Origin: a virus | Direction: 5' to 3' (one strand) | Virus record (IMG/VR): IMGVR_UViG_3300008117_000319 | Location: 1 to 38,571 of that record | Length of the DNA stretch: 38,571 bases | Shown here: in pieces, positions 35,371 through 37,730 of the stretch | Position numbering within the stretch: position 1 is the stretch's first letter | Layout of the letters: each line of letters begins with the position of its first letter | Program-made: the position numbers and the translations under genes | Notes under the pieces: model-generated | The model's database searches: none | Seen by the model: the letters and a program-made list of their open reading frames with translations, nothing else | Told to the model about the DNA's origin: nothing

Positions 35371-35649
35371 ATGGATAATTTTCATTATCATTTTGGGATA
35401 CATAGTAACATCCCAATGTGTTGTGCACTTTTCTATCAGCGAAAAAAGGATGAGGGGGTTGAACAAATTGGTTTAACCTATCGTCCTGAATTCATGGATC
35501 TTGACAAATATTTGCATATTCGTTATGTTTTATGTGATGACTGTGCTCATCAAGTGCTTTCAGGTAACCACACTGTAGTACGTACATTACATCTTTGCCA
35601 TCGGGATCCCACTCCTGATTGTGAAATATATCTTACAGAGGTAACATGA
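35371..35649 (+). CDS. Cys-rich, possibly zinc-binding protein, 92 aa
   Basis: 92 residues with MCCALF, CDDCAHQ and a later His/Cys region LHLCHRDPTPDC, which may form a zinc site. No ribosome site is obvious. The stop overlaps the rnh start (ATGA). No family recognised with confidence. Confidence 0.6.
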   Translation: MDNFHYHFGIHSNIPMCCALFYQRKKDEGVEQIGLTYRPEFMDLDKYLHIRYVLCDDCAHQVLSGNHTVVRTLHLCHRDPTPDCEIYLTEVT

Positions 35650-36533
35650 TTATTGTAGATTATAGCCAGACGGCAATTAGCACTCTCATGGCAGAGCTTC
35701 GTGGGCGGACTGACGCAGAAATCAGTACGCCACTTATTCGCCATATGATTATTAACGCACTACGCAGCTATAAGCTGAAGTATGGAAAAGAGTTTGGGGA
35801 AATTGTTATTGCCTGTGATAATAAACATTATTGGCGCAAGAAGATGTTCCCATATTACAAGGCAAATAGAAAGAAGGCGCGAGATGATTCTGGTTTCGAC
35901 TGGCATGCCATTTTCGAGGCGTTGAATCAAATCAAGCAGGAACTTGCCGAGCATTTCCCTTATCCTGTTGTTGAGGCGGAAACGGCAGAAGCCGATGACA
36001 TTATTGCATCACTGGTAATTTGGTCACAGGACCATGACCTTGTTCAAGAAGGTCTTGATATGGTCCCGCAACCTGTGTTGATCCTATCAGGCGACCATGA
36101 CTTCACACAGCTTCAACGTTACAAGAACGTGAAGCAGTATAGCCCCATCCACAAGAAGTGGGTGAAGGCGGAAGAAAGCATTGATAAGATTGTCATGGAA
36201 CATATTCTATTGGGTGACAAGGGTGACGGTGTACCTAACTTTCTTTCACCGGACGATGTGTTTGTAAGCGGTGGTCGGCAGAAGCCTATTCGTAAAAAGG
36301 ATTTGGAAGAATGGAAGAAGCTACCCATCTCACATTGGGATGGTACACCCCATGAGGCAAACATTCGTCGTAATGCCAATTTGGTGGACTTGCGAAATAT
36401 CCCAGAGGAGATTGGCCAAACTATTATAAATAACTTCACATCTCAAAAGGATGTTCGGGATAAATCACAATTGCTAAATTATTTTATTGCTCACAAGATG
36501 AAGAATCTCATGGAGCACATCACGGAGTTCTGA
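35646..36533 (+). CDS. rnh: RNase H / 5'-3' flap exonuclease (T4 Rnh family)
   Basis: 295 residues (T4 Rnh: 305). FEN-family motifs are visible: VDYSQT near the N-terminus, IACDNKHYWRKKMFPYYK, then AETAEADDIIASL, LSGDHDFTQL and LLGDKGDGVPNFLS. These Asp clusters bind the two metals. It removes RNA primers and flaps from lagging-strand fragments and completes the replisome gene set. It overlaps the previous gene by ATGA. Confidence 0.93.
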   Translation: MIIVDYSQTAISTLMAELRGRTDAEISTPLIRHMIINALRSYKLKYGKEFGEIVIACDNKHYWRKKMFPYYKANRKKARDDSGFDWHAIFEALNQIKQELAEHFPYPVVEAETAEADDIIASLVIWSQDHDLVQEGLDMVPQPVLILSGDHDFTQLQRYKNVKQYSPIHKKWVKAEESIDKIVMEHILLGDKGDGVPNFLSPDDVFVSGGRQKPIRKKDLEEWKKLPISHWDGTPHEANIRRNANLVDLRNIPEEIGQTIINNFTSQKDVRDKSQLLNYFIAHKMKNLMEHITEF

Positions 36534-37197: not shown

Positions 37198-37269
37198 GCC
37201 GCGTTCGTCTATCGGTTAGGACGCTAGACTTTCACTCTGGTAAGATGGGTTCGATTCCCATACGCGGTA
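37198..37269 (+). tRNA. tRNA-Glu (TTC)
   Basis: Acceptor GCCGCGT pairs with ACGCGGT (with one G-U at the end). The anticodon loop CTTTCAC gives TTC, on stem CTAGA/TCTGG. The T arm ATGGG-TTCGATT-CCCAT is canonical. No CCA is encoded. Confidence 0.92.
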
Positions 37270-37274
37270 CTTCT

Positions 37275-37430
37275 CGTCAACTTTGTAGGGTGATTTGACG
37301 TTAAATGCAGAACTCTACCGCTATTCATATTCGGCGCAGGAATATGGGCTTGGCAACGTCTCGGATGTTGCAAAAGGTTAAGGGGAGCGGGTCTAGACCG
37401 CGCGACATCCTTGGGTATCTGGAACATACC
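37275..37430 (+). ncRNA. Candidate structured non-coding RNA between tRNA-Glu and tRNA-Gln
   Basis: This 180-base gap has no credible gene but several helices: CGTCAA/TTGACG (37275-37300), CATATTC/GAATATG with a 7-nt loop (37326-37346), and GGTAT/ATACC with a 7-nt loop (37414-37430). Between them GCAACGTC (37353-37360) and GCGACATC (37402-37409) can both pair with GATGTTGC (37364-37371), so two exclusive folds are possible. T4 encodes two stable RNAs (C and D) of unknown role inside its tRNA cluster; this is similar by position only. Not a normal tRNA: no T arm is found. Confidence 0.45.
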
Positions 37431-37449
37431 TCAATTGTCACCCCTCTAC

Positions 37450-37520
37450 TGCCCTCTCGTATAATGGCAATACAGTTGACTTTGGATCAACGAATCGTGG
37501 TTCGATTCCATGGAGGGCAA
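37450..37520 (+). tRNA. tRNA-Gln (TTG)
   Basis: Acceptor TGCCCTC pairs with GAGGGCA. The anticodon loop CTTTGGA on stem GTTGA/TCAAC gives TTG. T arm includes GGTTCGATTCC. No CCA is encoded. Confidence 0.92.
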
Positions 37521-37559
37521 TGTAGTACCCGTCAATAAAAAACAAACAAAGGAGATAAT

Positions 37560-37730
37560 ATGCGTAATATGATTTTTGCAGTAGCACTTGTTGGTCTTGC
37601 CGCTTGTGGTAGCAAGGAAGAAACCGCAGTTGATACCACAGTTGCCGCCCCTGCTGATACGGCAGCTGCTGTAACGGTTCCTGACAGTGCAGTAACCAGC
37701 ACACCACTTGACACAGTGGTAGCCAAGTAA
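37560..37730 (+). CDS. Tiny lipoprotein, 56 aa
   Basis: 56 residues. MRNMIFAVALVGLAAC is a type II signal peptide: a basic start, a hydrophobic core and a lipobox LAAC with the lipid-carrying Cys16. The mature part (about 41 residues) is Thr/Val/Ala/Pro/Asp-rich. AAAGGAG lies 5 bases before the ATG, an excellent ribosome site. It sits between tRNA genes. It could be an outer-membrane spanin subunit or a superinfection-exclusion lipoprotein; no family is recognised. Confidence 0.65.
   Translation: MRNMIFAVALVGLAACGSKEETAVDTTVAAPADTAAAVTVPDSAVTSTPLDTVVAK

What the first reader, a model, noticed from the sequence alone, without database searches (positions are those of the whole stretch)
37275..37430. 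Structured RNA with two exclusive folds inside the tRNA cluster
The gap between tRNA-Glu and tRNA-Gln holds four to five helices and no convincing protein gene. One strand segment (37364-37371) can pair with either of two near-identical partners (37353-37360 or 37402-37409). T4 has stable RNAs C and D of unknown role in the same setting; this could be an unrelated or a diverged counterpart.
Basis: partly seen in the sequence, partly recalled or inferred. Interest (0 to 1): 0.65.

Follow-up and report, generated by a model that had tools for sequence, protein, structure and literature searches.

The report
Multi-pseudoknot RNA in phage tRNA cluster
Between two tRNA genes of an uncultured T4-like virus sits a ~175-base RNA that folds into linked knots, is conserved in at least 15 versions from related and unrelated virus contigs, and belongs to no catalogued RNA family, so it is a new non-coding phage RNA whose job can now be tested.

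Summary
The gap between tRNA-Glu and tRNA-Gln (37271-37449) does encode a structured RNA. I found 15 distinct versions in IMG/VR contigs. Fourteen abut the 5' end of tRNA-Gln and one has a tRNA-Gly in between. Close relatives without it have the two tRNAs abutting, so it is a clean presence/absence module.

It has two H-type pseudoknots (PK1, PK2), one hairpin (P5), and a 3' domain where helix P6 is knotted through P7/P8/P10/P9. On an alignment not fitted to the structure, 27 of 52 pairs change on both sides (13.6 +/- 2.3 in shuffles; 4-11 when slid). The 'two exclusive folds' are genuine in the window, but only 2 of 14 versions can form both.

The P8 loop carries a self-complementary hexamer in every version (UCUAGA, UCGCGA or UAGCUA; once UCUAGG with wobbles), predicting kissing-loop dimers. 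Nothing matches Rfam, named phages, T4 RNA C/D, pistol or HDV-like ribozymes.

Best reading: a stable RNA cut out of the tRNA precursor by tRNA-processing enzymes that acts in trans, probably as a dimer. Its existence is strongly supported; its function is inferred. It resembles ROOL and GOLLD in setting and style, not in family.

The parts
37271..37449 (+). Whole RNA region: the entire spacer between tRNA-Glu and tRNA-Gln; structured core about 37273-37445
   Evidence: covariance-model match 192 bits; 15 distinct homologs
37275..37300 (+). PK1 helix S1: 37275-37280 with 37295-37300 (CGTCAA/TTGACG); followed by UUAAA (37301-37305)
   Evidence: both-side changes at its two inner pairs; TCYCGTC...GACG(T/A)TAAA conserved in all 15
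37285..37318 (+). PK1 helix S2, pseudoknotted with S1: 37285-37291 with 37312-37318 (GTAGGGT/ACTCTAC)
   Evidence: 5 of 7 pairs with both-side changes; 12 different complementary arm pairs
37319..37336 (+). PK2 helix S3: 37319-37321 with 37334-37336 (CGC/GCG)
   Evidence: 9 different complementary arm pairs; own loops complementary in 14/15 versions, swapped loops in 36% (3 bp with G-U)
37326..37346 (+). PK2 helix S4, pseudoknotted with S3: 37326-37332 with 37340-37346 (CATATTC/GAATATG)
   Evidence: 7 of 7 pairs with both-side changes; 12 different arm pairs, swapped arms pair only 45%
37353..37371 (+).
   Evidence: kept in all 14 versions compared with 8 different arm pairs
37374..37412 (+). 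P6: 37374-37377 with 37409-37412 (AAGG/CCTT), pseudoknotted through P7/P10
   Evidence: invariant in the 9 type I rows; AAGGTT/AACCTT, AAGGTG/CACCTT and, in held-out L296, AAGGAT/ATCCTT
37381..37445 (+). P7: 37381-37385 with 37441-37445 (AGGGG/CCCCT), closes the 3' domain just before tRNA-Gln
   Evidence: two-sided changes; AGGGAGAA/TTCTCCCT in L009, TGGGA/TCCCA in L035
37387..37401 (+). P8 hairpin: 37387-37390 with 37398-37401 (GCGG/CCGC)
   Evidence: two-sided changes at 2 of 4 pairs
37392..37397 (+). Self-complementary loop hexamer TCTAGA in P8, predicted kissing-loop dimer contact
   Evidence: TCTAGA, TCGCGA or TAGCTA in 13 of 14 versions, TCTAGG (self-pairs with G-U) in the other; TCTAGA also in L296
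37404..37439 (+). P10: 37404-37407 with 37436-37439 (GACA/TGTC)
   Evidence: all 4 pairs with both-side changes; 6-bp version in type II; absent in L009
37413..37431 (+). P9 hairpin: 37413-37417 with 37427-37431 (GGGTA/TACCT), loop usually holding GGAA or a close variant
   Evidence: two-sided changes at 2 of 5 pairs, 100% of cells paired
37198..37270 (+). Upstream tRNA-Glu(UUC); its 3' end sets the likely 5' end of the RNA here
37450..37520 (+). Downstream tRNA-Gln(UUG); RNase P cleavage at its 5' end would set the 3' end of the RNA
   Evidence: near-constant downstream neighbour

Best explanation
The spacer encodes a discrete, stable non-coding RNA of about 175-180 nt. It is transcribed with the tRNA cluster and released by ordinary tRNA processing: RNase P at the 5' end of tRNA-Gln and 3'-end trimming of the preceding tRNA (inferred). 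The RNA folds into two H-type pseudoknots, a hairpin and a knotted 3' domain (supported by covariation). It probably pairs with a second copy of itself through the palindromic P8 loop (inferred from a palindrome that changes but stays a palindrome). It then acts in trans as a compact structural or decoy RNA during infection (inferred); it is dispensable and comes and goes between closely related phages (presence/absence shown).
For: Fifteen distinct homologs with essentially the same ten helices. A model built only from type I sequences recovers the divergent type II at E 1e-8 to 1e-10. Covariation far above shuffled and slid controls. A version not used to build the model (L296) fits all ten helices, with compensatory changes in S4, P6 and P7. 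The unit fills the tRNA-tRNA spacer exactly, and L006/L007 show the empty site with the tRNAs abutting. The upstream neighbour varies (tRNA-Glu; tRNA-Met; a 30-aa ORF), so the 5' end is defined by the RNA itself. Self-complementary P8 hexamer in all versions. No conserved reading frame.
Against: No transcript has been seen; I had no expression data for these uncultured phages. Near-constant proximity to tRNA-Gln suggests a cis link. The palindrome is partly explained by extension of the P8 stem in some versions, and UCUAGA and UAGCUA are weaker than retroviral dimer loops (-5.2 and -5.1 against -7.9 to -10.9 kcal/mol as duplexes). Only three independent palindrome states exist. L009 lacks P10 and L227 lacks S3.
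Confidence: 0.55

Rival explanations
1. Cis-acting leader: the RNA remains or folds as part of the tRNA-Gln precursor and controls RNase P cleavage, tRNA stability or read-through into the downstream cluster.
For: Fourteen of 15 versions are immediately 5' of tRNA-Gln and one has tRNA-Gly between, although the upstream neighbour varies. In L110 the stretch 95% identical to the window begins at P6 and ends at the end of tRNA-Gln (37373-37521), so the 3' domain and tRNA-Gln travelled together.
Against: Close relatives keep tRNA-Gln without the RNA (L005-L007). L227 has tRNA-Gly in between. The window and L148 share the RNA (88%) next to clearly different tRNA-Gln sequences. A 5' leader does not obviously need PK1 and PK2 more than 100 nt away.
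Confidence: 0.22
2. Self-cleaving ribozyme, HDV-like in the 3' domain or pistol-like in PK1, or a new class, that trims the neighbouring tRNAs.
For: Helix order of the 3' domain (P6-P7-P8-P6'-P9-P7') is that of HDV-like ribozymes, and HDV-like theta ribozymes sit next to phage tRNAs (PMC10879173). PK1 has a pistol-like order with a shared CGUUAAAU string (own knowledge of pistol).
Against: No Rfam ribozyme match up to E = 5. The pistol model is silent at the RNA in all 15 records, with one chance-level hit elsewhere. The position matching the catalytic C at the start of J4/2 is C, G or A in different versions. P10 is not an HDV helix. The cut site implied by that topology is ~100 nt from the tRNA 3' end, where theta ribozymes cut within 5 nt.
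Confidence: 0.1
3. Diverged counterpart of T4 RNA C or RNA D, or a decayed tRNA/tmRNA.
For: Same kind of place; T4 RNA C/D are RNAs of unknown role from the tRNA region (PMC9697503, PMC3014915).
Against: No model match in T4; no tRNA or tmRNA score for the spacer; RNA C has a T-arm-like 3' hairpin.
Confidence: 0.03
4. Small protein gene or chance structure.
For: ORFs of up to 77 codons overlap the region mechanically.
Against: Open frames change from version to version and lengths differ by non-multiples of three; covariation excludes chance.
Confidence: 0.02

Closest known systems
ROOL and GOLLD RNAs
   Same: Phage or prophage non-coding RNAs near tRNA islands, multi-pseudoknot folds, intermolecular kissing loops, function unknown (PMC12286853)
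   Different: 659 to over 800 nt and forming nanocages; no sequence or Rfam match here; this RNA is ~175 nt
T4 RNA C and RNA D
   Same: Small RNAs made from a T4-type tRNA cluster, role unknown
   Different: No homology; RNA C has a T-arm-like hairpin; they lie at the 3' end of the cluster after tRNA-Arg
Theta (HDV-like) ribozymes of phages
   Same: Next to phage tRNAs; similar order of helices in the 3' domain
   Different: No conserved catalytic C at the required position, an extra helix P10, no cleavage site at a tRNA 3' end, and about 100 nt of further conserved RNA
Pistol ribozyme (RF02679)
   Same: Hairpin whose loop forms a pseudoknot, followed by UUAAA
   Different: No model match; no P2/P3 core identified
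HIV-1 type dimer initiation loop
   Same: Type II P8 loop AA-UAGCUA-A in L035 and L244: 9 nt, six self-complementary, purine flanks
   Different: Not a retroviral genome; type I loops are 6-8 nt; dimerisation untested

Membership tests
ROOL / GOLLD (Rfam) | Match to the family covariance models | tested here: not met
   no Rfam family reaches even E = 5 in the spacer
ROOL / GOLLD (Rfam) | Symmetric RNA-only multimer | not testable with these tools
   only a palindromic loop predicts a dimer
T4 RNA C / RNA D | Sequence/structure homology | tested here: not met
   model silent in T4
T4 RNA C / RNA D | Discrete stable transcript from the tRNA cluster | not testable with these tools
   no expression data
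HDV-like / theta ribozyme | Catalytic C at first position of J4/2 | tested here: not met
   position is C, G or A among versions (arms read on sequences); definition from PMC10879173
HDV-like / theta ribozyme | Cleavage site within 5 nt of a tRNA 3' end | tested here: not met
   P6 starts about 100 nt after tRNA-Glu
HDV-like / theta ribozyme | Nested double pseudoknot order of helices | tested here: inconclusive
   P6/P7/P8/P9 order agrees; no P1.1 seen and P10 is extra
Pistol ribozyme RF02679 | Match to the Rfam model | tested here: not met
   no match at the RNA in any of 15 records
tRNA / tmRNA | Rfam or ARAGORN match | tested here: not met

The most novel reading that the evidence does not exclude
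A new family of small phage RNAs that assemble into RNA-only dimers or higher multimers through kissing loops, a ~175-nt minimal relative in kind (not in descent) of the ROOL/GOLLD assemblies, carried beside tRNA-Gln as an accessory element, for example a decoy against host defence.
Probability: 0.3. Interest if true: 0.85.

Novelty: new variant of a known kind. Interest (0 to 1): 0.66.

Why it matters
Phage tRNA islands hold several structured RNAs of unknown role (T4 RNA C/D, ROOL, GOLLD). This adds an apparently undescribed family, small enough for routine biochemistry and crystallography, with a covariation-supported fold, natural variants, empty-site controls and a sharp testable prediction (dimerisation by a six-base loop). 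That gives a tractable way to ask what non-coding RNAs in phage tRNA clusters do.

Tried and rejected
Rfam at gathering and permissive thresholds: nothing. BLASTN of four versions against 50,697 named phage records: no homolog. Pistol model over 15 records: no hit at the RNA. R1 model over T4, XacN1, KVP40, DLP_6, Syn1, Melnitz, Cr30, phiM12, HTVC008M, Aeh1, nt-1: nothing (the stricter filters used there lose weak matches). One type I PK1 pattern in GTDB genome contigs: 0 hits, so no bacterial carrier seen with that narrow pattern. Many hits of the short patterns were chance coding sequence and were discarded for lack of the rest of the fold. Chance S2-like complements of 6 bp are common in such pattern hits, so no weight is put on a single helix in a single sequence. 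Single-sequence folding energy is not significant. The model's weak matches in L027 and G018 (13.7 and 15.2 bits) look like chance. Two literature searches for a described phage tRNA-cluster RNA of this kind found only ROOL/GOLLD, theta ribozymes and T4 RNA C/D.

Full report
SETTING. The window is part of a 49,346-base virus record. A T4-type gene set (exonuclease at 35646-36533, PHROG 107) leads into a tRNA cluster: Glu, Gln, Ala, Val, Leu, Ser. The spacer between tRNA-Glu and tRNA-Gln is 179 nt, while Ala-Val and Leu-Ser are 3 nt apart.

OBSERVATION. No Rfam family matches at gathering level or up to E = 5. Folding energy of the spacer is unremarkable (z = -1.35), so the case cannot rest on the stability of one sequence.

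HOMOLOGS. Loci of related exonuclease genes and pattern scans yielded 15 distinct versions: window (=L002-L004), L148, L183, L177, L015, L245 (=L205, L251, L273), L110 (=L062), L238, L009 (=L010, L011), L296 (full form of L269), and a divergent type II group L035, L227 (=L257), L244, L259 (=L279), L285. All lie in tRNA clusters on the tRNA strand. tRNA-Gln follows directly in 14 of 15; L227 has tRNA-Gly between (L296 read directly). The upstream neighbour is tRNA-Glu in most. In L148, L177, L259 and L285 the preceding tRNA is tRNA-Met, and in L148, L177 and L296 a 30-aa basic ORF ends just before the RNA. Relatives L006/L007 match the window at 99% up to the end of tRNA-Glu and at 91% from the start of tRNA-Gln with nothing in between: an exact empty site. 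L110 is a mosaic: 95% identical to the window from 37373 (start of P6) to 37521 (end of tRNA-Gln), dissimilar 5' of that.

STRUCTURE. Arms read in each version give: PK1 = S1 knotted with S2; PK2 = S3 knotted with S4; hairpin P5; and a 3' domain with P7 enclosing P8, P10 and P9 while P6 is knotted into it. On the MAFFT alignment A2 of nine type I sequences, not fitted to structure, 87.6% of cells pair (79.2 +/- 0.9 shuffled), 27 pairs have two-sided changes (13.6 +/- 2.3) and the covariation score is 0.337 (0.195 +/- 0.015), with 0 of 500 shuffles reaching any of these; sliding partners gives 4-11 two-sided pairs. Caveat: I proposed the structure by reading these same sequences, and the shuffles ignore relatedness. 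Independent checks: the model R1, holding only the nested helices of type I, finds type II at E 1e-8 to 1e-10. The L296 full sequence, obtained after the model was built, fits all ten helices and shows new compensations (S4 TCTATC/GATAGA, P6 AAGGAT/ATCCTT, P7 AGGGA/TCCCT). S3, the shortest helix, pairs in 14 of 15 versions with its own loop and in 36% with swapped loops, so it is the least certain helix together with P10 in L009.

TWO FOLDS. The hairpin P5 is kept everywhere; the alternative partner is not. I conclude the switch is not a conserved property.

DIMER PREDICTION. The P8 loop contains UCUAGA (type I), UCGCGA (L009) or UAGCUA (type II), all self-complementary; L015 has UCUAGG, self-complementary with wobble pairs. 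In L035 and L244 the loop is AA-UAGCUA-A, the layout of the HIV-1 dimer initiation loop (own knowledge). Given type I, the chance that two further independent hexamers are palindromes is of order 1 in 1000 (own estimate), less striking if part of the loop is an extension of the stem. Duplex energies are modest. I hold dimerisation as likely but unproven.

MECHANISM. Shown: a conserved multi-pseudoknot RNA, exact spacer, accessory distribution. Inferred: excision by RNase P and tRNA 3' processing; dimerisation; action in trans. The main rival is a cis role for tRNA-Gln, favoured by the near-constant neighbour but weakened by relatives that keep tRNA-Gln without the RNA. A ribozyme role fails the definable tests: no conserved catalytic C at J4/2, no cleavage site near a tRNA 3' end, no pistol match (definitions from PMC10879173).

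KNOWN RELATIVES. Named phages searched by BLASTN lack it; the model is silent in 11 complete phages including T4. T4 RNA C/D are RNAs from the tRNA region without known role (PMC9697503, PMC3014915), similar in setting only. ROOL and GOLLD (PMC12286853) are the closest in style: phage, near tRNA islands, pseudoknotted, kissing loops, unknown function.

VERDICT. Structured RNA family: near certain. Apparently undescribed: likely, within the limits of Rfam 15 and open-access papers. Mechanism: moderate confidence.

Noticed in passing
L148:9192-9281; L177:3941-4030 (-); L296:1079-1168: A 30-residue, strongly basic ORF (MPHPKKCGKGRRKVGSKKRRNRWKNRKRNH, 93-100% identical) ends within about 10 nt of the RNA in three versions; no Pfam or PHROG match. 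Possible RNA partner protein.
   Followed up: partly
L266:7320-7390 (-): A PK1-like element alone (CGTCG/CGACG, GCTGGGT/ACCCAGC, GACGTTAAA) sits just 5' of tRNA-Asp in another tRNA-rich viral contig (24 bits to the model, partly from the tRNA); may be a detached module or chance.
   Followed up: partly
L227:5959-6149 (-): Group I intron (Rfam 55.8 bits) in the tRNA cluster of a phage that carries the RNA.
   Followed up: no
L183:1-302 (-): tmRNA (72.9 bits, cut by the locus end) on a viral contig that carries the RNA.
   Followed up: no
L244:2415-2508; L227:6218-6311 (-); L259:4517-4610: Three type II phages share a 94-nt tRNA-like gene scoring weakly as both ends of tmRNA (about 20 bits, below cut-off).
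   Followed up: no
L034:6617-6704: A different 88-nt insert occupies the same Glu-Gln spacer in a related phage, so the site accepts other RNAs or tRNA remnants.
   Followed up: no
window 37560-37730: Small lipoprotein-like ORF (56 aa, LAACGS lipobox) between tRNA-Gln and tRNA-Ala, followed by a GC hairpin (AGGTCCTTCGGGACCT).
   Followed up: no
L110:444-592 against window 37373-37521: Recombination block of the RNA's 3' domain plus tRNA-Gln, with the break at the start of helix P6: the RNA is modular.
   Followed up: yes
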